Below, piece by piece: positions 12,442 to 64,000 of a stretch of 64,000 nt of DNA. Numbering within the stretch: position 1 is the first letter of the stretch; every line of letters starts with the position of its first letter. The notes under the pieces are model-generated. The model was not told the DNA's origin and did not search any database. It saw nothing but the letters and a program-made list of their open reading frames with translations. The translations under genes were made by a program, and so were the position numbers. The DNA is from a virus: positions 18,262-82,261 of the IMG/VR virus record IMGVR_UViG_3300020182_000022; one strand, written 5' to 3'.

Positions 12442-12864
12442 TTAAGAGTCGTTGTGAACGAGTATATCGTTGGCGAAGAAGCATTGAGTGTCTTCTATTG
12501 TTAGGTTATATACTTTTTGAGTCATATCGTTATGGATTTTGTGCATATCCACTATTTTGGTTTGTTCGAGTTCAGAGTTGAGAACTGTCAAACCTACGGC
12601 TATTTTATCCGCGCGAAGCCATTCACTATCTACATAAATCTTATGATCATGAGTCAATATGATCGACTCACCGGTTTCTACTTGAATGTATATGAAGTCC
12701 TTGGATGAAGAGCTTCGGGTGGCTACCACATCACTAGTGATGATCTTTTTCTTTTTCACCGCATATGACTTTATGCTCATGTCGACTGATGTCAGGCTCT
12801 CTATAATATAGTCTAAGTCGCGTTCTTCTGAATTGACATTTATGACTGTAGTTGATGGTAGCAT
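12442..12864 (-). CDS. Free-standing Hint (intein-like) domain protein
   Basis: The 140-residue protein is essentially one Hint domain with no extein of useful length. The start MLPSTTVINV fits the first intein block except that the catalytic Cys1 is Met. The second block is present (GESIILTHDHKIYV, with Thr and His), and the C-terminal blocks are intact (VYNLTIEDTQCFFAND, then ILVHN). After the terminal Asn only Asp-Ser follow before the stop. No homing-endonuclease insertion is present. The gene has its own late promoter and lies between the tape measure and a tube-cap-like gene. A domesticated intein or bacterial-intein-like domain that can perhaps only cleave at its C-terminus, or has a structural role, is my inference. 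Confidence 0.8.
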   Translation of the reverse strand: MLPSTTVINVNSEERDLDYIIESLTSVDMSIKSYAVKKKKIITSDVVATRSSSSKDFIYIQVETGESIILTHDHKIYVDSEWLRADKIAVGLTVLNSELEQTKIVDMHKIHNDMTQKVYNLTIEDTQCFFANDILVHNDS

Positions 12865-39302: not shown

Positions 39303-39978
39303 TCTTGTATTGATTGTAAAATATTTGTTGTGACTCTTGAAATGTTTTATCGTTGATGTCTCTCAAGCCTGGGCTCGCATGAGTGACATGAATAGGATAT
39401 GTTCCTATTTTGAGTTTCAATTTGTTCGCATCTAAACAACTCGAGAGATCGTAATGATGAAATTTGAACGACTCATTAAATTTCCATCCAGCCTGCAATA
39501 CATTCTTCAGATTTACAGCCATGAACAATCCATCAATCACAAGACATCTTTTAGGCCATGGACCGAAGCTAGTCACTCCTAACTGACTACTATCATTGAT
39601 TGGATGTGACACCGCGCCTGACATGTCTTCACGTTCACTCATGACGTGCCACAAGCATGGTTGTTTGATTTTAACTTTGCTAGAACCAGCTAGTCCTACA
39701 ATATCGTACTTCATCTGATTCATCGCAGTATACAACTTACCTTTCAATTTCAGGTCATCGATAAACACATCATCATGCACAAACAACACAATATCATGTT
39801 TGATTAGATTTTCTGCTGTTAACTGTCTGTTGTATGCTTGTGACAAACCAGACTTGTTGTTAGCATTGATAACAACAGTCACATCGTTTTTTAATTCATT
39901 GAGAGATTTCGCTAACATTGAATCTCTTCCGTCACCCTTGGAGCAAGTGACTACTAATATCTTTCTCATTTCGTTCAT
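39295..39978 (-). CDS. Glycosyltransferase family 2-like protein
   Basis: The start at 39978 overlaps the upstream stop as ATGA, giving 227 residues; other in-frame ATGs exist upstream. The GT-A features are the opening strand RKILVVTCSKGDGRDS, a NNKSGLSQAYN helix and the metal-binding DxD-like segment VLFVHDDVFIDD. A later FNESFKFHHYDLSSC could be the acceptor-side part. The substrate is unknown. It sits between an amidotransferase and gp41; a link to DNA modification or to host envelope sugars cannot be decided from the sequence. Confidence 0.7.
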   Translation of the reverse strand: MNEMRKILVVTCSKGDGRDSMLAKSLNELKNDVTVVINANNKSGLSQAYNRQLTAENLIKHDIVLFVHDDVFIDDLKLKGKLYTAMNQMKYDIVGLAGSSKVKIKQPCLWHVMSEREDMSGAVSHPINDSSQLGVTSFGPWPKRCLVIDGLFMAVNLKNVLQAGWKFNESFKFHHYDLSSCLDANKLKLKIGTYPIHVTHASPGLRDINDKTFQESQQIFYNQYKNE

Positions 39979-40676
39979 AGGAAAAATGGGCTGTTTGATT
40001 GGAATTCTCCGCATGTCGCTAATCCTTCCGTAGTTGAGCAATATATGACACCTTCTCTGAGTTCTTCTTCGACAACACCAGGCACTTTGATGGAACTAAA
40101 CTCACCGGTGTCAGTATTACCAAACAACGTGCTGCCGCTTCTCACCAGGAATGTACATCCGGTCAGCTTGCTGTATATCCAGCATGCGAAGGTTCCTTGC
40201 AATTGATTACAAGCCTTTTCTAAAGCCACAATCTCAGCTGTTCTCTTGCCTTCATCTAACTCCTCACCTAAGAATTCCTCGCTAAACTCAAATACTAATG
40301 ATATTAAAGCTGGTATCACTGAGCTGTCTACTGAATTGTAATGATCTGGCATCAACTCCTCTACTAATTGTCTGTCATTCTGCAAGACACCGTTATGAGC
40401 CACTATATAATAGAAGTCTTCAAATGGATGGCTTGTTACAGGGCTGAACTCGCGATTGGACGATGTAGGAGCTTGTGTGTGACCTAAAAATTGATTGTAA
40501 TCACCTGAGAAAGCGTAATCACCGGTAAGATCCACCACATTCGGATCTTTTCGGATGTAAATCTCCCGGCCTCTTGTTGTGTATAAGCTACCATACGAGA
40601 AATTACCTCTCTCGCGATTAGCAATGTATAATTTCTCATAATTTTTAAATATTGTTGAACCGAAAATACCGCACAT
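39975..40676 (-). CDS. Class II glutamine amidotransferase (Gat), QueC neighbour
   Basis: The 233-residue protein begins MCGIFGS, placing the catalytic Cys at position 2, as in N-terminal nucleophile amidotransferases. It keeps the NREFSPVTSHPF and VAHNGVLQN segments that bind glutamine. No synthetase domain follows. The next gene upstream is QueC. Fused or adjacent Gat and QueC are known from archaea and from phage 9g, where Gat-QueC is tied to conversion of preQ0 to archaeosine (G+). An ammonia donor for 7-deazaguanine DNA modification is therefore the best inference. It has its own promoter starting exactly at the ATG. Confidence 0.82.
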   Translation of the reverse strand: MCGIFGSTIFKNYEKLYIANRERGNFSYGSLYTTRGREIYIRKDPNVVDLTGDYAFSGDYNQFLGHTQAPTSSNREFSPVTSHPFEDFYYIVAHNGVLQNDRQLVEELMPDHYNSVDSSVIPALISLVFEFSEEFLGEELDEGKRTAEIVALEKACNQLQGTFACWIYSKLTGCTFLVRSGSTLFGNTDTGEFSSIKVPGVVEEELREGVIYCSTTEGLATCGEFQSNSPFFL

Positions 40677-40682
40677 AGTTAT

Positions 40683-40711
40683 ATTATAGCTGAGCTAACT
40701 GTTTATCGCAA
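40683..40711 (-). promoter_or_regulatory. Early sigma70-type promoter for Gat-GT-gp41 operon
   Basis: On the minus strand, TTGCGA (40711-40706), 17 bases and TATAAT (40688-40683). The predicted start is 40676, the A of the ATG. The -35 lies inside the end of queC. Confidence 0.82.
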
Positions 40712-41408
40712 CACAATTGTGTGACTTCCATGGTATTTCTCTGCTGTATGGTATTGGGTCAATATAACCAGCTTCTAAAAATCCTTGAATACGTGAACTA
40801 CATGCCGTGCACTCCCCACATGCCTCGTCTTTACCTTCATAACAAGTCCATGTATTAGAGAAGTCTACTCCTAGCTCGACACCCATTCTGATGATCTCAG
40901 CTTTGCTCTTGTCAATCAGAGGCGCTTCTATTGTGACTCGATCGCGTCTGTTCAATTGGTTTACGTTGTTGATCGCTTCTAGAAACTCTTTGCTACCGTC
41001 CCAGAATCCTGCTTGACTGTCAACCAGAGCAGATCCATGGAACACGGTACTAGCGCCAATTGATTCTGCATATGCTGTGCATATAGACAACATCATCATG
41101 TTTCTGTTAGGTACATAATTGACAGTTTGTGGGTCTCCTAACACATCTCTCGCTTTTGCTACATCAATATCATCATTAGTCAGAGCACTAGTTGTCACAA
41201 TGTCTTTGAAGAACTTTAGATCTAGTATCTTGAGGTTTTCTTGTTTGGTTCTGTGTATTGTATTTTGTGCGCAAACCAATTCTTTGTCTCTGTGTTTCTG
41301 TCCATAATCATACCCAACGGCCTGAATTTCATATCCTTTTGATCTAGCGAGATGGTATATCACTGTGGAGTCTAAACCACCGCTTAACGGTACAATACAT
41401 TTATCCAT
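40695..41408 (-). CDS. queC: 7-cyano-7-deazaguanine synthase QueC
   Basis: The ATG at 41408 is supported by a promoter starting one base away and gives 237 residues, usual for QueC. It has the PP-loop ATPase motif PLSGGLDSTV at the start, NYVPNRNMMML in the middle and the C-terminal zinc site CYEGKDEACGECTAC. QueC converts 7-carboxy-7-deazaguanine to preQ0 with ATP and ammonia. With FolE at 63812-64000 and the amidotransferase next door, it suggests that the phage makes a deazaguanine base for its DNA. QueD, QueE and DpdA are not seen in this window. Confidence 0.93.
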   Translation of the reverse strand: MDKCIVPLSGGLDSTVIYHLARSKGYEIQAVGYDYGQKHRDKELVCAQNTIHRTKQENLKILDLKFFKDIVTTSALTNDDIDVAKARDVLGDPQTVNYVPNRNMMMLSICTAYAESIGASTVFHGSALVDSQAGFWDGSKEFLEAINNVNQLNRRDRVTIEAPLIDKSKAEIIRMGVELGVDFSNTWTCYEGKDEACGECTACSSRIQGFLEAGYIDPIPYSREIPWKSHNCVAINS

Positions 41409-41415
41409 AGTTTTT

Positions 41416-41444
41416 ATTATATGAACTATATAAAATGAAGGCAA
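41416..41444 (-). promoter_or_regulatory. Early sigma70-type promoter for queC
   Basis: On the minus strand, TTGCCT (41444-41439), 17 bases and TATAAT (41421-41416). The predicted start is 41409, one base before the ATG at 41408. Confidence 0.8.
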
Positions 41445-54853: not shown

Positions 54854-56191
54854 ATGAAACCGTTCAAGCAATACTATACTGAACAACAAACGTTACTAGA
54901 GAACAGAAGAACGTTCTTGAGAACCTTGTTTGGAGGTGCGGCAGCCATGGCAGTTAGCAATCCGGTCCGGGCTGCGAATGCTGTTGCGAATGCAGCTAGT
55001 GCTCCATGGATCAAAATGAGCTTAGAGCAGGATTTCTCCATGTATGATTACGCTAAAGTTTCAGCAGATGAGATCGCTAATTTGATCGCCATGAAAGGAA
55101 AATACACACCAGGAGTGAGTGCTGATGGTGGTATCACTGTCAATTACAATGACAGTGCAGTGGACATGGTCGAGGTGTATGTCAAGCCTGGCACGCCCAT
55201 GTACAAACAAGTCGCGGCAAGAATATCTGATGATCCAGATGTAGACGCACCAGGTGGGTTTGATTTTGAAAAGCAGGTGTTTAACACGATTGGAGATGAT
55301 GATGGTTCAGGTGTGAGTTGGCTTGAGGATCAGCTTGAATCGATGGCATCACAGGATTATGAAGAATTTAAAAAATTACCTCAAGACATGAAAGATGAAC
55401 GTCGAGATGTTGACGGAATAGATGATTCTGGTTACCAACCTGAGGCTCAAATGAATGCATCTAGTAGGGTGAAAGAGTTTATCGATCAGGCTGAAGAGAT
55501 CGGAGCCGAATTACCAGATTGGATGCGTGATGTGGTGGGTAGAGGATACATGAAAGGTCATGTGTTAGCTAATGCGAGTGGAAATGAAGAGGTATCCACT
55601 GACACATTGGTGGAGTTACAGGATTTGTACCCAGGTGAACACATTGATTACCCTGATGAGATGGATATTGACAGATGGTTGGATGGTACTGCTGACAATC
55701 CGATGGACTCTATGGGTTACGATCGAGAAGAGTATAGTCGGGACATGGATCAAGTCGCCGGCGAACTGGAATATAAGGATCAAGATGATGATATTCAAAG
55801 CAGAGATGATTCAGAAATGACCACCGTGACCGTTCCAGGTTACGATAGTTCTGCAGATAATTGGGCCGAGGCTGGATTCAATTTCCTCATGGGGGCTTCA
55901 CAAACTATGCAACAAGTCCCAGTGAAACACGTGATGAATGTTCCTGGTTTTTATGACGCGATCAAAAAAGGACGAGAGATGAATGGAGATTCTGAAGAAA
56001 CGGACATAGACGAACCGTTGACTATCGCGCATGATGGTAGTGACACGATCGAGATAATCGGTGGTTTCGCACAACTAGCAGCTGCAGATGATGAGAAAAT
56101 GCCCCTCCGTAGAGTGCGGATGGTGCATGTTGATGAGTTGCAAGCAGAACCAGAAAGCACCTCAAAATATTTAGACAATGAGAACATTTAG
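54854..56191 (+). CDS. Late protein with capsid-targeting-like leader followed by a Tat-like signal
   Basis: The 445-residue protein opens MKPFKQYYTEQQTLLE, a leader ending in L-L-E. Then NRRTFLRTLFGGAAAMAV and PVRAANA fit a twin-arginine (RRxFL) signal with hydrophobic core and AxA-type end at residues 18-43. The rest is acidic, with a compact C-terminal part. No enzyme motif is recognised. If the leader targets it to the head and is removed, the new N-terminus would expose the Tat motif. The last codons overlap the next ATG by 14 bases in an NENI-stop arrangement. Confidence 0.6.
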   Translation: MKPFKQYYTEQQTLLENRRTFLRTLFGGAAAMAVSNPVRAANAVANAASAPWIKMSLEQDFSMYDYAKVSADEIANLIAMKGKYTPGVSADGGITVNYNDSAVDMVEVYVKPGTPMYKQVAARISDDPDVDAPGGFDFEKQVFNTIGDDDGSGVSWLEDQLESMASQDYEEFKKLPQDMKDERRDVDGIDDSGYQPEAQMNASSRVKEFIDQAEEIGAELPDWMRDVVGRGYMKGHVLANASGNEEVSTDTLVELQDLYPGEHIDYPDEMDIDRWLDGTADNPMDSMGYDREEYSRDMDQVAGELEYKDQDDDIQSRDDSEMTTVTVPGYDSSADNWAEAGFNFLMGASQTMQQVPVKHVMNVPGFYDAIKKGREMNGDSEETDIDEPLTIAHDGSDTIEIIGGFAQLAAADDEKMPLRRVRMVHVDELQAEPESTSKYLDNENI

Positions 56192-56201
56192 ACAATTTTA
56201 C
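56178..56201 (+). repeat. Leader-coding repeat, copy 1
   Basis: The 24-base sequence codes for MRTFRQFY and also contains the stop of the upstream gene. A near-identical copy starts at 56599. Confidence 0.85.
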
Positions 56202-57419
56202 GAAGATAATTCAATGGAGTATCACTACACCATTATAGGTATAGGTGGATATCATAGTGAGAATATAATAGTGTTAAAATCGTTTGGACATGTACCAGAT
56301 CAAAAAGTAGAGGGATTGGTCAAGTACTCAACACAATTAGCAAATGAGCAATTCGGTGAAGATGAAGATTATCAAGGTGAGTATGAAGATTATGTTGAAT
56401 TTGGTACAGCCGATGCGATGAGCAATTTTTATCATGATGTGGGTATAGATGAAGCAGTTGGAGAGTATCACATAAACGAGCAATACAAGCTTGTCAAGCA
56501 CATCCCACCTCACCGGTCCATAACGGCTGGTGATGCCAATTTTGAAGGTGATGAGATGTTCTTTATTCGTACCCTAGATGGTTGGGATGGTAGTGTAAAT
56601 GAGAAAACATTTAGACAATTTTACACTGAGAATCTTAACAGATTTGAAAACATGGACGATTTAATCTTTGGAGTGATGGACCTGATTTACAGTGCCGGGG
56701 ATTATGAAGCCAATTTACGTCCTGTGAGTGTGGTTGATTATGGTATCAAGGAGACACAGCAAATGATTGACGATTACTTGACTGGTGCGGGATTGAAAGA
56801 TACACAACCTGAATGGTATCAGCAACGATTTGACATATACAAACAACTGGATGATGACGTGGTGCAGTCGAGTAAGGACCCGGACAATCTACCAGAAGAA
56901 CCGGATGGTGAATGGAAAACAGAAGAAGAATACAAAGAAGAGATGGAAGACCATCATGAACTATATGCTCGTTTCCGCGCCATGGTGCTAGCAGCCATGC
57001 ACAACAAAAGCTGGAAAGAGTATACTAATGAGTATAGTGATGATCACATACTCAACTCGACCAGACGTCAGAACGATGTATGGAAGGCGTCAGAGCGTAT
57101 GAGGGACGGATTTGGTATAAACGAAGGTCTATGGGCCAACATCAACGCCAAGAAAAAACGCGGAGGCAAGAGTGCCAAGAAAGGCAGCAAAGCATACAAA
57201 GCTGCTAAGAAGGCTGGTGACAAACTAGAAGTCACAAAAGAAAACTTCAAAGACGGCAAGAAAAAAGGCAAGAGTCGTCCTGGTAGAGTCAAAAAAGCCG
57301 GCACAAGCTGCAACGGATCAGTGACAGAGCTTCGGAAACGCGCCAAGAACAGCAGTGGTGAGAAGGCCAAAATGTCACACTGGTGTGCGAATATGAAGAG
57401 TGGTAAGAAAAAGAATTGA
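56178..57419 (+). CDS. Apparent fusion of two capsid-targeted proteins with basic tail
   Basis: The 413-residue frame begins MRTFRQFYED and carries a second copy, KTFRQFYTEN, at residues 143-152. The DNA around both copies is nearly identical, but the second has AAAA instead of AA. Without those two bases, the first part would stop as NENI and a new gene would start with ATGAGAACATTT, exactly as at the junction with the previous gene. The C-terminal 85 residues are very basic (KKRGGKSAKKGSKAYKAA, then ending MKSGKKKN), of the kind seen in DNA-associated phage proteins. It may be a true fusion or a homopolymer artefact. Confidence 0.6.
   Translation: MRTFRQFYEDNSMEYHYTIIGIGGYHSENIIVLKSFGHVPDQKVEGLVKYSTQLANEQFGEDEDYQGEYEDYVEFGTADAMSNFYHDVGIDEAVGEYHINEQYKLVKHIPPHRSITAGDANFEGDEMFFIRTLDGWDGSVNEKTFRQFYTENLNRFENMDDLIFGVMDLIYSAGDYEANLRPVSVVDYGIKETQQMIDDYLTGAGLKDTQPEWYQQRFDIYKQLDDDVVQSSKDPDNLPEEPDGEWKTEEEYKEEMEDHHELYARFRAMVLAAMHNKSWKEYTNEYSDDHILNSTRRQNDVWKASERMRDGFGINEGLWANINAKKKRGGKSAKKGSKAYKAAKKAGDKLEVTKENFKDGKKKGKSRPGRVKKAGTSCNGSVTELRKRAKNSSGEKAKMSHWCANMKSGKKKN
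56599..56624 (+). repeat. Leader-coding repeat, copy 2, with two extra A
   Basis: Same sequence as copy 1 except for a two-base expansion of AA to AAAA (56604-56607). The ATG at 56599 is out of frame with the downstream coding region because of it. Confidence 0.85.
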
Positions 57420-57435
57420 TATTCAGATAATTTAG

Positions 57436-57443
57436 TGTAAATA
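57436..57443 (+). promoter_or_regulatory. T4-type late promoter for nuclease gene
   Basis: TGTAAATA predicts a start at 57449, exactly the ATG. Confidence 0.72.
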
Positions 57444-57448
57444 AATAC

Positions 57449-57946
57449 ATGCCATCTCCTCAGAAAGCCAAAGGAAATGCCTTTGAGAGGGACACAGCAA
57501 AGCATCTCTCGGACGTATTCGGATTGAATTTTACGCGTGTACCCACTAGTGGTGCTATGACTGGAGGAATGAATGCTGATGTGTTGGCTCGTTTGTCTCA
57601 CTCACAAAAACTATTACTAGAGGGAGATTTGATTCCACCTGATGAATTGTACAAGATGAAGATCGAATGCAAAGCTCATAAGGATATATCATTCAGTAAA
57701 TTCTATACTGAGAATAAAATGTTAGACAGTTGGTTGGAGCAATCATTTTCTGATGAGAAAAATTGGTTTTTAATATTTAAAATCAACAACCAAGGCAAAT
57801 TCATTGCGTTTGATACTAATGTATTCGAGCAATGTAACAAATTAGACGGTGCTAACTACTTGGTATATAAAGAAACCAATTACGTGACTCCTTTAGATGG
57901 GTTCTTTGAGAGATACAAAGATGTTTTGTTGCGTTTATGTAAGTAA
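57449..57946 (+). CDS. PD-(D/E)XK nuclease, resolvase-like
   Basis: The 165-residue protein has the layout of a small PD-(D/E)XK nuclease: KGNAFERDTAKHL with Glu13, then a Gly/Thr loop (RVPTSGAMTGGMNADV), Asp60 in LEGDLIPP, and the E-x-K pair Glu73-Cys-Lys75 in KIECKAHKDI. Archaeal-type Holliday junction resolvases and VRR-type nucleases share this look. There is no leader peptide like those on its neighbours. In a late operon, it could trim or resolve DNA during packaging. Confidence 0.75.
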   Translation: MPSPQKAKGNAFERDTAKHLSDVFGLNFTRVPTSGAMTGGMNADVLARLSHSQKLLLEGDLIPPDELYKMKIECKAHKDISFSKFYTENKMLDSWLEQSFSDEKNWFLIFKINNQGKFIAFDTNVFEQCNKLDGANYLVYKETNYVTPLDGFFERYKDVLLRLCK

Positions 57947-57951
57947 TCTCT

Positions 57952-57959
57952 TATAATAC
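57952..57959 (+). promoter_or_regulatory. Late-type promoter box, degenerate
   Basis: TATAATAC; with late spacing the start is 57965, exactly the ATG. Read as a sigma70 -10 (TATAAT) the start would be one base earlier, so the class is uncertain. Confidence 0.55.
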
Positions 57960-57964
57960 AAGTT

Positions 57965-58549
57965 ATGGACTCAATCGAGTTAGATAATTACAGCTTACAT
58001 GTTATAAATTTCGAATCTATATTCACGCGCGCGTACAAGTGTATTGTTGACGATTTGTTCACGTATGACAAGTTTCATGATCATAACGTGAGATCACAAG
58101 ACACTAAGCGTATATACTATTATCATCTGATCAAGACCATATGTGATGTTGTTATTGAGACTAAAACTACGAACAAGATTGTGATATATTATTGTGAGAA
58201 GGATGTCAAGTGTGATTTCAAGTCCTGTATCAATTCTAGAACTCGCAAAGGTGGTGATAATGATAATAGATCAGACTTTGTGTTGTTCATGAATCGATTT
58301 TTCAAGCAGATCAAAACCATGATACCGGTTCGCGTGTTTATTGGTGATGTCAAGTTCAATACGTTTGTTCAATATTACAACACCAACAAAGGGAAATACA
58401 TTGAAGTGATCAACGAGTTGAGGAACATCACAAGCAAGCCTAATTTTAATTTCTCCAAGCTCAAGAAATATAGTGACAAATATAAATTGATTTATATAAG
58501 CAAGGATTATCTCAATCAAGTGAAAGTTAAGTCGATTATGTATAAATAA
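57965..58549 (+). CDS. Hypothetical protein, 194 residues
   Basis: The product has alternating strand and helix segments, including NYSLHVINFESIFTRAYKCI, NKIVIYYCEKDVKCDF and TMIPVRVFIGDVKFNTFV. The early Asp/Glu-containing strand and later acidic residues faintly recall PIN-like nucleases, but no motif set is convincing. Its last two codons and stop (Y-K-stop) form the late promoter of the next gene. Confidence 0.6.
   Translation: MDSIELDNYSLHVINFESIFTRAYKCIVDDLFTYDKFHDHNVRSQDTKRIYYYHLIKTICDVVIETKTTNKIVIYYCEKDVKCDFKSCINSRTRKGGDNDNRSDFVLFMNRFFKQIKTMIPVRVFIGDVKFNTFVQYYNTNKGKYIEVINELRNITSKPNFNFSKLKKYSDKYKLIYISKDYLNQVKVKSIMYK
58541..58548 (+). promoter_or_regulatory. T4-type late promoter built into the upstream stop
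   Basis: A perfect TATAAATA made from the last two codons and part of the stop of the previous gene. The predicted start is 58554, exactly the next ATG. Confidence 0.88.
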
Positions 58550-58553
58550 TATT

Positions 58554-59141
58554 ATGAAACGTGATTTTAACAGTTCAATTCAGCATGCTCGGAGCAAGTA
58601 TCTCCCAACAGTTACTGAGAAATCTGACAGCATGAGCAACAAGACTAACAATTTGATTGAAGGTATGATGAATGATTTAGCTGGTAGTGTGAAGAAAGGT
58701 ATAAATAAAGTAGCTGGTGCTACTCAAAAGATTCGTACATTCGCACAGAATCAAAAACACGGTGGTACATTCGGGGCGATGAGCAGTGCTGGTATGTTTG
58801 ACCCCAAAGGAGACAGTCAAAAGGTTAGAGCAGAATGGGACAAGTTGGATGCTGGTGCCAGAAAGGCATGGGAGCAAAAGGGAAAAGATTTCACTCCTCC
58901 ACAGGAGGGAAAAGATTATTTCTATAATTTTAAAATGCAGGCACTCGCGAAAGATAAAACGCGCGCGGCTGAAGGGAAATCACCACCAACCGGTGGTGGG
59001 ACTCAAACCCAACAAACTCCAGCACAACAAGAGCAAGCTTGGAGAGATTCATTTAGAAACAACCCTACCATACAACAACAAGCTCAAGCCAACAACATGG
59101 ACGAGGATAAATACGTACAGTTCATGAAAGCACAACAATAA
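58554..59141 (+). CDS. Hypothetical late protein
   Basis: The 195-residue product has a polar N-terminal part (containing LIEGMMNDLAGSVKKGINKV), then a segment AEWDKLDAGARKAWEQKGKD that faintly recalls HMG-box spacing, and a Gln-rich C-terminal part (TQTQQTPAQQEQAWRDSF). A perfect late promoter starts transcription on its ATG. A DNA-bound virion protein is possible but not shown. Confidence 0.6.
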   Translation: MKRDFNSSIQHARSKYLPTVTEKSDSMSNKTNNLIEGMMNDLAGSVKKGINKVAGATQKIRTFAQNQKHGGTFGAMSSAGMFDPKGDSQKVRAEWDKLDAGARKAWEQKGKDFTPPQEGKDYFYNFKMQALAKDKTRAAEGKSPPTGGGTQTQQTPAQQEQAWRDSFRNNPTIQQQAQANNMDEDKYVQFMKAQQ

Positions 59142-59152
59142 TAATTTAATAT

Positions 59153-59515
59153 ATGAAAAAGTTCACACATCTAATAGAAGAACACCTTCGCGTTTTAAAC
59201 GAAGAGGATCCAGCATTACCACCAGCTGATCCAGCCGCGGCACCAGTTGACCCAGCTGCTGCTCCTGTACCAGAAGAGACTCCAGAGAGTGCAATTCCGG
59301 ATGAAGAGAGTGAAGGTCAAGAAGACACAGCAGTGTTGAAAGTCAATTATGTTGAGATGATACGCAAAGCATTGATCATGGCTCCTAAGCATATTGATGA
59401 TGTTGATTATGCCAAGTTGACCAAGGTTGTTGACACAGAGAATCTAGAAGAGATGCAAGAGTTGGTTAGTCGTATTGTGAAGAACAATTATCCACATTCA
59501 GATTTTGAAGTATGA
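59153..59515 (+). CDS. Small late protein with capsid-targeting-like N-terminus and Ala/Pro linker
   Basis: The 120-residue product starts MKKFTHLIEEHLRVLNEED, with two [I/L]-x-E sites. A linker of DPAAAP-type repeats (residues 20-42) and an acidic stretch follow. A small helical domain (KVNYVEMIRKALIMAPKHI, then ENLEEMQELVSRIV) ends the protein. The plan of leader, linker and small domain is shared with 29678-30127. No clear late box is visible directly upstream, so it is probably read from the previous promoter. It overlaps the next gene by four bases. Confidence 0.65.
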   Translation: MKKFTHLIEEHLRVLNEEDPALPPADPAAAPVDPAAAPVPEETPESAIPDEESEGQEDTAVLKVNYVEMIRKALIMAPKHIDDVDYAKLTKVVDTENLEEMQELVSRIVKNNYPHSDFEV

Positions 59516-61077
59516 GCGATCGTGATTTAAGAAATTTATATGAGAATGTTCGGCGCGGTGACGAGTATGTTGCACCGAAACGCGAGAGTGAATTATATTC
59601 TCACGTGTTAAATAACCAAGAGAATAATAACGTGATCGAAGAGGCGACAGTTACTGTTACACTTACAGACGGTACGACACAAACGGTTGAAATAACAGAT
59701 AGTAATGCGAAGGAATTACAAAATGTATTAAAATTACCATTAGACAGAAACTCAGCATTTTTTAAAACAAATGACGGATGGGACTCTTATCGAACTACTC
59801 AAGATCAAGCTCATGAGCTGAGCCGCGAGACAGGATCAATCGCCGATAAGGGTAGGTTACTGAAGAAGATTAAAATGAGAGCGGCAGAATCTACTGCAAT
59901 TGCGAACGTACAGGAGCGTACTTTAAGTGATGTTGTACAGGATTTGCTTAAATTTGTTATGGATACCGCTGACCGAACGATGAAAATAGAGGGAGAATCG
60001 ATCAATCAAAGCGTCAAGGCTAATCAAATAATGAGCCAGATCGAGAGCGGTGTTTTGCAGAGAGAATTAATCGGTTTTATGGGTAGTGTAGGTAAAAGTA
60101 AGTTCAATCTATGGGCTCCATTAGAGGGTAAACAGTCCACTCATACTTCAGGTGCTCAGCCAATACACTTCGATTTGGAACGAAACCCAGATATGAAATA
60201 TTTAAAGCCGTTTGATGAGGCAAAGAAGGCTAGAGGAGCTGCAGGCCCGGGTGAATCTCTACTATCATTCATATATGGAGGTCAAAAACCGGATGGAGCG
60301 GGTGATATACAACTCAACTCTAATACAGAACATACAATAGAATTGAAATTTAACCAGGGCAGGATAGGCAAGGGTATCAAAGGTGCGAAGCCTAAGAGTG
60401 TGACAGCTCTGTTTATCAAGGGCATTGACCAAGCGATGGCTTATTTTGGTGGTAACAATAAGAATAACCCTATATATAAAGTACAAAATCCGATGGGTGA
60501 AGACGAGTATTTAACGTATGAAAAATTAAAGAACTTAAGTGAAGACGAGCATTATAAGATATATTTCAACGCCAGCACCGGTTTGCCACTTGCAAAACTA
60601 AAAATTAAGCAAAGTGAAGTTGCTGGAGCGTTTGCTCATGGTAGTTCGGTTAAAATCAACACAGAAGATGGCGATCAGACCGTCCCGGTCGATCAGATGA
60701 CTGTTCAACAATTTAAAGATGCATTCTCTGGAATTCAAGAAACTGGAAAATATAAAGACGAGCCTTGGGCTGTTGTTAATTATGGGGGTGAGTTTTTGAG
60801 TGAACTGCTCGTGGATGCACTAAAACAAATACCAGGTAATACTGATAAAAATAGAGTAGAGAATCTCATTGGTGTTTTTCACCTTAAGAACTACCTGACA
60901 CACATTGCTAAATTCAAGTGGTTGGTTGTTTATAATGAGAGCGGTGATGCAGTATCAGTAACATCTGATGATATACTAAAACTCGATCCAATACCACTAC
61001 TCACTAGATTGGGTGAGTCCGGACTTAAATTTTACCCACGTGATGATGCGTCTGGGTTTGATATTCGTTTTATATAA
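59512..61077 (+). CDS. Putative PD-(D/E)XK-like protein of the late cargo region
   Basis: The 521-residue protein begins MSDRDLRNLYENVRRGDEYV, a tag of the second type seen in this window. The middle is helical. From residue about 245, PGESLLSFIYGG, then GAGDIQLNSNTEHTIELKF places Glu248, Asp265 and Glu277-Leu-Lys279 in the spacing of a PD-(D/E)XK nuclease core. The C-terminal part is mixed alpha/beta. It overlaps the ligase-like gene by one base, suggesting that the two proteins act together. The nuclease call is an inference from motif spacing. Confidence 0.5.
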   Translation: MSDRDLRNLYENVRRGDEYVAPKRESELYSHVLNNQENNNVIEEATVTVTLTDGTTQTVEITDSNAKELQNVLKLPLDRNSAFFKTNDGWDSYRTTQDQAHELSRETGSIADKGRLLKKIKMRAAESTAIANVQERTLSDVVQDLLKFVMDTADRTMKIEGESINQSVKANQIMSQIESGVLQRELIGFMGSVGKSKFNLWAPLEGKQSTHTSGAQPIHFDLERNPDMKYLKPFDEAKKARGAAGPGESLLSFIYGGQKPDGAGDIQLNSNTEHTIELKFNQGRIGKGIKGAKPKSVTALFIKGIDQAMAYFGGNNKNNPIYKVQNPMGEDEYLTYEKLKNLSEDEHYKIYFNASTGLPLAKLKIKQSEVAGAFAHGSSVKINTEDGDQTVPVDQMTVQQFKDAFSGIQETGKYKDEPWAVVNYGGEFLSELLVDALKQIPGNTDKNRVENLIGVFHLKNYLTHIAKFKWLVVYNESGDAVSVTSDDILKLDPIPLLTRLGESGLKFYPRDDASGFDIRFI

Positions 61078-62405
61078 TGAACTTTAAAAAATTTAACAGA
61101 ATATTAGAAGAAGGAGGAGCGTATGGTCACATGGCGAATGTACATGAAGATTACACTCTACAATTTGAAGACCTTCAAAACATAATCAGACAAGCACTCA
61201 CTGGAGGCATTCAAGGCACTATCAAGGAGAAGACAGACGGTCAAGCATTAGCAGTTGGATACAGAGCTGGTATAGTTAGATTTGCTCGTAACAAAGGACA
61301 TTACAGAGGATTCGGTAAAGACAGTATCAAAGGTAGCAAAGGTGTTATCAATTTCTTTAAAGATCATCCAAATGAAAACGTCAAAGAGGCATTCAGTTTT
61401 GCAGCTAAAGATTTAGAGAAAGCCATTCAAGCATTGAGTGACAAGCAAAAACAATTGTTGTTCGGAGATGGTAAAAGATGGATCAATATAGAAGTAATCT
61501 GGCCTGCTACTGTGAATGTGATTCCATACAATCATGAATTGTTGGTGTTACACAACTTCAGAGAGTATGATGAAGAAGGTAATGTGTTAGATGGAGACTT
61601 TGATGAATATGGACGCATGATGGCGGGTATGATCAAGCAAGTCAATCAGGATGTTCAAAACAAATTCACAATCACTAGCATGCCAATGTTAAAACTTCCG
61701 CAAGTGAGTAACTTCGAAGCTAGTCAAGATGAGTATTTGTCCACTATCAACAATATAATGAGTCAATATCAGTTGAACCCTACTAATACAATAGGAGACT
61801 ACTGGGTAAGCTACATGTCACAGGCTATCGCTAATGGCGCTAAACAGTTTAACTATATTGTTCAACCAGATGCTCTCAGGAAAGTTGCATTGAGATGGGC
61901 ATACAAAGGATTAACACCAGGTAAACGACCTAGAGAATATAACGCTACAGCGCTAAAGAATATAGGTGAATTGAAGGCTGCAGTTGACAATATGGAATTT
62001 GTACAATGGGTCAGTGCTACTGAGAAGAGTGGTGAGTTGAAAGGATTGTTTGATAATATGAACGATCCGCTCAAGACATTGTTTCTCAAGCTTGGTGTGC
62101 AGCTCAATAAAAATATTTCCAATCTACTCACATTGAATCCAGATGAAGCAGTTCAGGATATCAGGAGAGGTATTGAGGAAGTCACTAGAGAGATTGAATC
62201 TACCGGTGACATGACTCTTATGGCTAAGTTGCAGAAAGAACTCAACATGATTGAAAAGTTAGGTGGGCTCAAGGAGATTGTACCTACTGAAGGATTGACC
62301 TTCACATACACACCTAAAGGTACAGATGAGCAGAAGATTTATAAATTCACAGGTATATTTGCACCAGTGAATCAGATTTTAGGCAGTTTGAAGTTCGCTA
62401 GGTAG
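61077..62405 (+). CDS. Ligase-like nucleotidyltransferase with capsid-targeting-like N-terminus
   Basis: The 442-residue protein opens MNFKKFNRILEEGG. It then shows a covalent-nucleotidyltransferase pattern: KTDG at residues 52-55 (motif I, Lys52 as nucleophile), RFARNKGH near 68-75, an acidic WINIEVIWP (Glu139) as motif III, and a far C-terminal TEGLTFTY (Glu405-Gly406) with YKFTGIFA (Lys423), which fit motifs IV and V. DNA and RNA ligases and capping enzymes share this order. The substrate is unknown. Unnamed relatives with KTDGQ and RNKG occur in T4-like marine phages, to my recollection. An adenylate-forming ligase carried in the head is the inference. Confidence 0.65.
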   Translation: MNFKKFNRILEEGGAYGHMANVHEDYTLQFEDLQNIIRQALTGGIQGTIKEKTDGQALAVGYRAGIVRFARNKGHYRGFGKDSIKGSKGVINFFKDHPNENVKEAFSFAAKDLEKAIQALSDKQKQLLFGDGKRWINIEVIWPATVNVIPYNHELLVLHNFREYDEEGNVLDGDFDEYGRMMAGMIKQVNQDVQNKFTITSMPMLKLPQVSNFEASQDEYLSTINNIMSQYQLNPTNTIGDYWVSYMSQAIANGAKQFNYIVQPDALRKVALRWAYKGLTPGKRPREYNATALKNIGELKAAVDNMEFVQWVSATEKSGELKGLFDNMNDPLKTLFLKLGVQLNKNISNLLTLNPDEAVQDIRRGIEEVTREIESTGDMTLMAKLQKELNMIEKLGGLKEIVPTEGLTFTYTPKGTDEQKIYKFTGIFAPVNQILGSLKFAR

Positions 62406-62406
62406 C

Positions 62407-62748
62407 TTATTGCATCTTCGCACTAAGCTCTGCTTTTTTATCATCTAGATACTTACTAGACAAGTTTTTCATATCCTTAACCTGTTTAGGTAATTGTTTA
62501 CCAGTTGCTTTAGCTTCTTCCTCAGCTTCAGCAGTTTCAGTTGCAGCATTGATTGCAGTTTCAGTTGAACTCTCGACATCATCTACTTTCTCCTGTACGT
62601 TAGAATCGTTCCCAAGACATTTTCCAGCCTCTTCGCACTTCGATTCAGTTGAGCAATGAGAACACGGCTTGAATCCTGATTTCCCTTCAAATATATTCAT
62701 ATATGCATTCGCGAGTGCGTCAAAGTCCTTCTTGTGTGATGATGTCAT
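62407..62748 (-). CDS. Small late protein with tag-like N-terminus and four-Cys cluster
   Basis: The 113-residue product begins with a helical tag (DFDALANAYMNIFEGKS, ending I-F-E) followed by a Cys cluster (CSHCSTESKCEEAGKC) that could bind zinc. The remainder is an Ala/Glu/Lys-rich helix. A late box starts transcription exactly at its ATG. It converges on the ligase-like gene with one base between stops. Function unknown; probably part of the same cargo set. Confidence 0.62.
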   Translation of the reverse strand: MTSSHKKDFDALANAYMNIFEGKSGFKPCSHCSTESKCEEAGKCLGNDSNVQEKVDDVESSTETAINAATETAEAEEEAKATGKQLPKQVKDMKNLSSKYLDDKKAELSAKMQ

Positions 62749-62753
62749 ACGTT

Positions 62754-62761
62754 TATTTATT
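62754..62761 (-). promoter_or_regulatory. T4-type late promoter overlapping an upstream stop
   Basis: The minus-strand box AATAAATA predicts a start at 62748, exactly the ATG. It overlaps the stop codon of the preceding minus gene. Confidence 0.78.
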
Positions 62762-63032
62762 AGAATTTATCAGATATCGATGGATTTGGGTGATTTATTT
62801 GTGTACCTCCATCACCATGCTCAGGACCTTGTTCAATGTATTCAGCGTCAACACCGGGGTTGGACGTCACCATACCTGACACATTCATAACAGCCGTATC
62901 ATTACTAGGATTATACAAGTATAAATCCCATTCATTGTATGATTCTAGTTTTCCTTGTGAGTTAATCGCTTGTTTAACTGTTGGTGTTCCTGGAGACTTT
63001 TTCCTCCAATATGATTTACTTGTACCGGCCAT
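62760..63032 (-). CDS. Hypothetical late protein, 90 residues
   Basis: The ATG at 63032 is preferred to an upstream ATG because the late box at 63038-63045 predicts initiation exactly there. The product starts AGTSKSYWRKKSPGTPTVKQ and then has a beta-type segment (WDLYLYNPSNDTAVMNVSGM). No family is recognised; a small virion decoration-type protein is possible. Confidence 0.6.
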   Translation of the reverse strand: MAGTSKSYWRKKSPGTPTVKQAINSQGKLESYNEWDLYLYNPSNDTAVMNVSGMVTSNPGVDAEYIEQGPEHGDGGTQINHPNPSISDKF

Positions 63033-63811: not shown

Positions 63812-64000
63812 CTATCTTTTTAAATCTCTTACAAAATCGTAAAACTCTTGTCGTGTGTTGATATCTTTACGATCTAAAAAGGCACCGCTCATTCTTGCAG
63901 TCTTCATCGTACTGTCGTGTTTAACACCTCGTACACATGCACACAAGTGGTTTGCTTCGATTAATACAGCAACACCTCTGTTACCTTCACAAACACTGTC
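63812..64000 (-). CDS. folE: GTP cyclohydrolase I FolE, C-terminal part (N-terminus outside window)
   Basis: The last 62 residues are present: GVAVLIEANHLCACVRGVKH, then TARMSGAFLDRKDINTRQEF and a final RDLKR. HLCACVRGV carries the zinc-ligand Cys of the GTP cyclohydrolase I active site, and the TRQEF end is typical of bacterial FolE. The enzyme makes dihydroneopterin triphosphate from GTP, the first step of preQ0 synthesis as well as of folate. With queC and the amidotransferase in this genome, the preQ0 route is the likely use. The N-terminal two thirds lie past the right edge. Confidence 0.9.
   Translation of the reverse strand, partial: DSVCEGNRGVAVLIEANHLCACVRGVKHDSTMKTARMSGAFLDRKDINTRQEFYDFVRDLKR

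What the first reader, a model, noticed from the sequence alone, without database searches (positions are those of the whole stretch)
57449..62405. Nuclease, PD-(D/E)XK-like and ligase-like genes in one late operon, one with a head-targeting leader
A PD-(D/E)XK nuclease (57449), a second protein with PD-(D/E)XK spacing (59512; E248, D265, E277/K279) and a KxDG nucleotidyltransferase (61077; K52, E139, E405, K423) lie in a late-promoter operon, and the last two overlap by one base. The ligase-like protein carries an N-terminal leader ending ILEE. Late timing is odd for DNA repair unless the enzymes act during packaging or are injected. Possible roles include sealing or processing genome ends at entry, or attacking host DNA or RNA. 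This is my best candidate for an undescribed system.
Basis: partly seen in the sequence, partly recalled or inferred. Interest (0 to 1): 0.78.

Follow-up and report, generated by a model that had tools for sequence, protein, structure and literature searches.

The report
Hypervariable phage nuclease paired with ligase
In marine relatives of phage T4, a DNA-cutting enzyme whose body is swapped almost completely between near-identical phages always sits directly before a ligase-like enzyme, and both carry short tags suggesting they are loaded into the virus particle and injected into the host, as part of an arms race.

Summary
61077 is a divergent KxDG nucleotidyltransferase of RNA-ligase type: its catalytic motifs are invariant in 37 relatives, the AF2 model has pLDDT 86, and the leading PDB fold hits are all ligases, mostly RNA ligases. 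In all 42 contigs read, this nuclease gene lies directly upstream of a KxDG nucleotidyltransferase, either the 61077 type (7) or DUF6267 (35). The nuclease body is at noise-level identity (about 25%) even where the partner is 90-97% identical, while a short leader, often ending in a prohead-protease-like [LI]xE site, is kept. Window and L005 are 97-98% identical on both sides, yet 59512 is 34% identical and similarity resumes exactly at the ligase ATG. I read this as a packaged, co-injected nuclease-ligase pair under diversifying exchange, like T-even internal proteins. Packaging and substrates are inferred, not shown. 57449 is a known family (PDDEXK_15). 61077-type ligases also occur without the nuclease, as C-terminal domains of multi-enzyme proteins upstream of terminase.

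The parts
59512..59643 (+). Leader of the slot nuclease: about 33 conserved residues (MSDRDLRNLYENVRRGDEYVAPKRESELY...), ending near I42-E43-E44|A45, a prohead-protease-like [LI]xE site
   Evidence: DNA similarity to L005 ends at 59612, codon 34; leader shared by all window-clade slots; hydrophobic-x-E at this place in 21/30 homologues, [LI]xE in 17/30 against 1.3% base rate
59644..61077 (+). Swappable PD-(D/E)XK nuclease payload (E248, G264-D265, E277-x-K279)
   Evidence: Only invariant payload columns in 28 to 30 homologues; 34% identical to L005 although flanks are 97-98%
61077..61112 (+). Leader of the ligase-like protein, MNFKKFNRILEE|GGAYGH, probable head-targeting and cleavage sequence
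   Evidence: Residues before the conserved glycine fit [LI]xE in 56 of 73 distinct family members; leader has pLDDT below 50 in the model
61077..62405 (+). KxDG covalent nucleotidyltransferase of RNA-ligase type (K52, R71-N72, E139, E405, K423) with about 200 residues, mostly helix, between motifs IIIa and IV
59153..59515 (+). Small leader-bearing protein always directly before the slot in the window clade (function unknown)
   Evidence: Same order in all window-clade contigs; C-terminal half 76-86% identical
57449..57946 (+). PDDEXK_15 / phrog_244 nuclease (resolvase-like), same operon, replaced by GIY-YIG in sister phages
57965..58549 (+). Conserved operon protein of unknown function
   Evidence: 55-63% identical in relatives
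58554..59141 (+). Variable operon protein, 66% to L005
54854..56191 (+). Neighbouring cargo-like protein: conserved leader (MKPFKQYYTEQQTLLE) and first ~53 residues, rest swapped (41% to L005; L005 version ends in a ParB-like stretch)
56178..57419 (+). Neighbouring cargo-like protein: conserved leader, swapped middle, conserved C-terminus; contains a second internal leader copy at 56597-56642

Best explanation
59512 and 61077 are one two-gene module of marine T4-like phages. The first gene is a PD-(D/E)XK nuclease with a fixed N-terminal leader and a rapidly exchanged body. The second is a conserved KxDG nucleotidyltransferase of RNA-ligase type. Both are made for the virion, brought into the prohead by their leaders, trimmed by the gp21-type protease and injected with the genome. 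In the new cell the nuclease cuts DNA of the host, its mobile elements or a rival phage, at targets that change when the body is exchanged. The ligase repairs broken nucleic acid needed for infection, most likely RNA such as tRNA cut by host defences. Shown here: motifs, pairing, body exchange, leader conservation. Inferred: packaging, cleavage, injection, substrates. My step estimates: nuclease core 0.93, ligase-type core 0.9, functional pair 0.85, packaging 0.6, DNA target 0.6, RNA sealing 0.45. The confidence given is for the packaged, co-injected pair, not for every substrate named.
For: Nuclease core: invariant E, GD, ExK. Ligase core: motifs; AF2 pLDDT 86, pTM 0.84; top Foldseek PDB hits are T4 Rnl1, archaeal RNA ligases and T4 Rnl2; PF09414 RNA_ligase is the leading Pfam match in 18 of 37 members, best E 0.0033; hhalign to a T4 Rnl2 profile E 0.025 with KxDG in register. 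Pairing: 7/7 complete window-clade contigs and 35/35 DUF6267 contigs with upstream sequence, often overlapping by 1-4 bases; 61077-type and DUF6267 exclude each other in 9 contigs and look homologous (hhalign E 4.9e-4). Exchange: payload 24-26% against a 21% shuffled baseline where partners are 90-97% identical. Leaders. Prohead protease S77 is present in 4/4 DUF6267-clade contigs tested and in 3 contigs with the fused form. RNA-repair-like company of the ligase domain: P-loop kinase, HIGH and Pol-beta nucleotidyltransferases, fused or as leader-tagged neighbours. TerL lies within six genes downstream in 76/85 loci. T4 precedent: targeting residues 4 and 7, L/I-x-E cleavage, and anti-defence role of IPI and IPIII (PMC9026906, PMC9391042).
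Against: No virion proteomics. The AF2 model of 59512 failed (pLDDT 35), so its fold rests on motifs alone. Foldseek TM-scores for the ligase are low (0.2-0.35) and no hit reaches E 0.001 in PDB. 13 of 73 ligase junctions read LxM, not LxE. Only 2 of 208 Melnitz ORFs fit a strict head-targeting pattern. In cultured cyanophages DUF6267 often lacks a leader and sits beside replication genes. No head protease was recovered in window-clade contigs, which are fragments. The RNA substrate is an analogy.
Confidence: 0.45

Rival explanations
1. The pair works inside the producing cell on phage DNA: the nuclease trims or debranches replicating DNA and the ligase closes nicks before packaging, as T4 endonuclease VII and DNA ligase do.
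For: Operon lies next to UvsW-like recombination genes; PDDEXK_15 57449 is resolvase-like; ligase-fused proteins sit just upstream of terminase; no ATP-dependent DNA ligase (PF01068) was found in the 8 contigs searched.
Against: A housekeeping DNA enzyme should not be exchanged down to noise-level identity; fold hits favour RNA ligases; a leader with a cleavage-like end is kept on both genes; the contigs are fragments, so the missing DNA ligase is weak evidence.
Confidence: 0.2
2. The nuclease is a weapon against co-infecting phages or mobile elements, and the nucleotidyltransferase is its guard: it repairs the owner's DNA or modifies the nuclease until delivery.
For: Strict pairing with a conserved partner, translational coupling, diversification as in conflict systems. 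QueC in window-clade phages could mean modified, protected DNA.
Against: A specific guard should co-vary with its nuclease, yet the partner is conserved while bodies differ totally. No TGT/DpdA enzyme was found. PADLOC gives no match.
Confidence: 0.15
3. The slot is a landing place for mobile, homing-type endonucleases that spread themselves; the ligase next door is incidental.
For: T4-like phages carry many free-standing homing nucleases (T4 examples); a SegE-type GIY-YIG gene occupies the 57449 place in sister phages; sharp exchange borders.
Against: The slot is never empty in 42 contigs; leader and reading frame are always kept; the family has one catalytic core rather than mixed nuclease folds; no bacterial relative was found.
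Confidence: 0.1
4. Coincidence: ordinary neighbouring late genes with chance PD-(D/E)XK spacing.
For: No family library names either protein.
Against: Invariant residues across 28-30 diverged proteins and 42/42 pairing.
Confidence: 0.03

Closest known systems
T4 internal proteins IPI/IPIII and Alt (capsid-targeting sequence, gp21 cleavage)
   Same: Short N-terminal leader with aromatic residues and an L/I-x-E end; divergent mature bodies behind a related leader; injected anti-defence role (PMC9026906, PMC9391042)
   Different: Here the bodies are PD-(D/E)XK nucleases in strict pair with a ligase-like enzyme; packaging not shown
DUF6267 (PF19782, phrog_455, T4-like GC 71)
   Same: KxDG (KWDG) protein with a leader, occupying the same place after the slot nuclease; hhalign E 4.9e-4 to the 61077 family
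   Different: 61077 itself does not match PF19782
T4 RNA ligases 1 and 2 / PF09414 RNA_ligase
   Same: KxDG/KxHG motif I, motifs III, IV, V; fold hits
   Different: About 200 mostly helical residues inserted between motifs IIIa and IV; domain ends right after motif V; below Pfam cut-off; TM 0.2-0.35
Polyvalent proteins of phages (PMC5512222)
   Same: Relatives of 61077 are C-terminal domains of 800-1550-residue multi-enzyme proteins with kinase, HIGH and ParB-like domains near virion genes
   Different: In the passages read that paper does not report RNA-ligase domains in such proteins; 61077 is stand-alone
T4 denA-rnlA neighbourhood
   Same: A nuclease gene (EndoII) lies directly before an RNA ligase gene
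   Different: Different nuclease family, not shown to be packaged or hypervariable

Membership tests
PD-(D/E)XK nuclease superfamily (59512) | Catalytic acidic residue, D, and (D/E)-x-K at conserved places | tested here: met
   E248, D265, E277-x-K279 invariant in 28-30 homologues; shuffles 0.1%
PD-(D/E)XK nuclease superfamily (59512) | Alpha-beta core fold | tested here: inconclusive
   AF2 from two sequences failed, pLDDT 35, though a hairpin carries D265 and ExK; no PDB hit by sequence
PD-(D/E)XK nuclease superfamily (59512) | DNA cleavage | not testable with these tools
   Needs an assay
Covalent nucleotidyltransferase / RNA ligase superfamily (61077) | Motif I KxDG plus motifs III, IV, V | tested here: met
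   Invariant in 37 relatives
Covalent nucleotidyltransferase / RNA ligase superfamily (61077) | Nucleotidyltransferase core fold | tested here: met
   pLDDT 86 model; the first 26 PDB hits are RNA or DNA ligases, E 0.007 upwards, low TM
Rnl1 or Rnl2 family proper (61077) | Match above family cut-off | tested here: not met
   Best PF09414 E 0.0033 in a relative; none for the window protein itself
DUF6267 (61077) | Match to PF19782 | tested here: not met
   No match in G000; distant profile similarity only
T4-type packaged internal proteins | N-terminal leader ending in [LI]xE | tested here: met
   61077: ILEE|G, 56/73 relatives; 59512: VIEE|A, 17/30 homologues
T4-type packaged internal proteins | gp21-family prohead protease in the same phage | tested here: inconclusive
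   Found in sister-clade contigs, not in window-clade fragments
T4-type packaged internal proteins | Presence in the virion | not testable with these tools
   Needs mass spectrometry
PDDEXK_15 (57449) | Match above PF24608 cut-off | tested here: met
   85.8 bits against cut-off 27
Homing endonuclease (59512) | Sporadic presence, empty sites | tested here: not met
   Slot occupied in all 42 contigs
Known anti-phage defence proteins | Match in PADLOC | tested here: not met
   No convincing match

The most novel reading that the evidence does not exclude
A so far undescribed phage conflict system: an injected, target-specific nuclease whose body is exchanged as fast as restriction-enzyme specificity genes, obligatorily coupled to a conserved ligase-like enzyme that acts on the products or protects the owner. 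It would be shared by many environmental T4-like phages, with related arrangements in pelagiphages and methylophages.
Probability: 0.35. Interest if true: 0.88.

Novelty: new variant of a known kind. Interest (0 to 1): 0.72.

Why it matters
It gives two genes without any usable annotation a testable function, names a new nuclease family with extreme body exchange, and links the widespread unknown family DUF6267 (453 phage records) to ligase-type chemistry. If the pair is injected, it extends the small set of known packaged T4 anti-defence proteins to enzymes with changing targets in abundant ocean phages.

Tried and rejected
DNA search for the region in cultured phages found nothing. tblastn of slot nucleases in cultured phages found nothing. 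AF2 of 59512 failed. PDB profile searches for the slot family gave no nuclease. No bacterial relatives of the slot nuclease. A strict head-targeting pattern is rare genome-wide in phage Melnitz, so it is no general marker. DNA modification by 7-deazaguanine: QueC found, TGT/DpdA not, left open. Sealing of genome ends: no support. An obligate link of the 61077 family to nucleases was rejected: most family members are fused to other enzymes with no nuclease upstream. Contig counts from IMG/VR contain near-identical contigs, so the key counts were repeated on non-redundant sets.
Full report
WHERE IT IS. The window is the last 64,000 bases of an 82,261-base IMG/VR virus record, a T4-like phage fragment with sheath, tube and baseplate genes, UvsW-like helicase and family B DNA polymerase (my reading of the translations; helicase by PHROGs). 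No annotated phage has similar DNA over 57000-63000.

THE OBSERVATION. The three ORFs, the one-base overlap, the catalytic residues and the ILEE leader are all there. 57449 belongs to Pfam PDDEXK_15 and to a PHROGs resolvase group. The late-promoter claim is weak: TATAAATA is enriched over the window (13 against 6.1), but the copies near the operon are at 58541, a few bases before a start codon, and at 58700, inside a gene.

THE LIGASE-LIKE GENE. Three phage records and at least 588 IMG/VR stretches encode relatives. In 37 aligned members K52-x-D-G, R71-N72, E139, E405-G and K423 are invariant. AlphaFold gives pLDDT 86. The strands with motifs I, III, IIIa, IV and V are present, but residues about 176-400 are mostly helical and interrupt the set between IIIa and IV. 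Foldseek against PDB returns RNA and DNA ligases for all of the first 26 hits, with modest scores. Half of the members touch Pfam RNA_ligase below threshold; no other family does so in more than three. A profile of T4 Rnl2 aligns with motif I in register. I conclude that it is a new family of ligase-type nucleotidyltransferases, nearer RNA than DNA ligases.

In most environmental phages this domain is the C-terminus of a protein of 800-1550 residues with an N-terminal leader, a HIGH-type nucleotidyltransferase in every complete fused form, often a P-loop kinase, sometimes a ParB-like or Pol-beta domain. Such proteins lie just upstream of the terminase in 76 of 85 loci. The residues before the ligase core fit [LI]xE|G in 56 of 73 distinct sequences, the same place as the leader end of 61077. 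This fits release by a prohead protease; T4 gp21 cuts after L/I-x-E (PMC9026906). Kinases and Pol-beta nucleotidyltransferases accompany RNA ligases in phage RNA repair (PMC7824862), which is why I favour RNA; HIGH enzymes are not part of that picture and remain unexplained (NAD synthesis is an alternative, PMC9503650).

THE NUCLEASE GENE. No library names it. Its conserved upstream neighbour 59153 led to further contigs in which the order 57449-57965-58554-59153-slot-ligase is kept. All complete slot proteins begin with the same leader and contain the E, GD and ExK motifs, although bodies mostly share 20-36%. A search from the slot side found sister phages (L138, L142, L143); in the two that continue beyond the slot the next gene is a different KxDG protein, DUF6267, E 1.3e-78. 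From DUF6267, 36 loci were found; in 35 of 35 with upstream sequence a slot nuclease precedes it, within -4 to +18 bases (23 by strict pattern, most others by BLAST, the rest by the alignment). Among 28 aligned proteins only M1, Y10, G245, E248, G264, D265, E277 and K279 are invariant (30 of 30 for the catalytic set). A strict pattern hits 25 of 30 homologues and 0.1% of shuffles. The fold itself could not be modelled.

EXCHANGE. Window and L005 are 98% identical up to 55012 and 97% from 61077 onwards, but unalignable between 59612 and 61077. The border falls at codon 34 of 59512 and at the ATG of 61077. Genes 54854 and 56178 show the same pattern: kept leader, swapped body. Over all pairs, payload identity is 24-26% where partners are 90-97% identical; shuffled sequences give 21%. 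The slot is never empty in the contigs read.

PARTNER SWITCH. 61077-type and DUF6267 did not occur together in nine contigs tested; the contigs are fragments. Their profiles align at E 4.9e-4 (probability 32%) across leader end, GH/HLTH and KxDG, so they may be diverged forms of one ancestor. In cultured phages (HTVC008M, Melnitz, S-CAM9, P-SSM7) the gene before DUF6267 is not of the GE-GD-ExK family, but in each case has a D..(S/E)xK-like stretch (for example TPKTDFTIGNNKISLKSG), seen by eye and not tested further. Melnitz gene 15 begins MQGFKTFLSEA, with residues 4, 7, 8 and 10 as in the T4 targeting rule (PMC9026906).

MECHANISM. The simplest account is the T-even internal protein logic: a constant ticket into the head and a changing body that meets host defences or host DNA first. 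IPI and IPIII show that such proteins act against host defences (PMC9391042). What is new is that the changing body is a nuclease and that a conserved ligase-type enzyme always comes with it. Packaging, cleavage, injection and both substrates are inferences.

VERDICT. A real, strictly coupled gene pair with an exceptional exchange pattern; new family of nucleases, new family of ligase-type enzymes, function proposed but unproven.

Noticed in passing
54854-56191: After the leader MKPFKQYYTEQQTLLE the protein continues NRRTFLRTLFGGAAAMAVSNPVRAANA, which looks like a Tat signal peptide; cutting at the [LI]xE site would expose it. The L005 version ends in a ParB-like DGQHR stretch that is degenerate in the window.
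   Followed up: partly
56597-56642: Second, internal copy of the leader (EKTFRQFYTEN) inside gene 56178, as if two cargo genes had been joined.
   Followed up: no
L013-L091: Large family of multi-enzyme proteins (kinase, HIGH, ParB-like, ligase) upstream of terminase in environmental T4-like phages, with [LI]xE|G at the ligase junction; the ligase domain gave no PHROGs match and no Pfam match above cut-off.
   Followed up: partly
L142:6724-8954: Leader-tagged HIGH-type and Pol-beta-type nucleotidyltransferases downstream of DUF6267, separate genes here but fused in other phages.
   Followed up: partly
12442-12864: Protein with intein/Hint-like end (ILVHNDS) next to a tail gene.
   Followed up: no
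39975-41444 and 63812-64000: QueC and a GTP cyclohydrolase fragment: 7-deazaguanine pathway genes; no TGT/DpdA found in the fragments.
   Followed up: partly
L094:36341-37952: In T4 the nuclease gene denA lies directly before RNA ligase gene rnlA, the same order as in the pair studied here.
   Followed up: no
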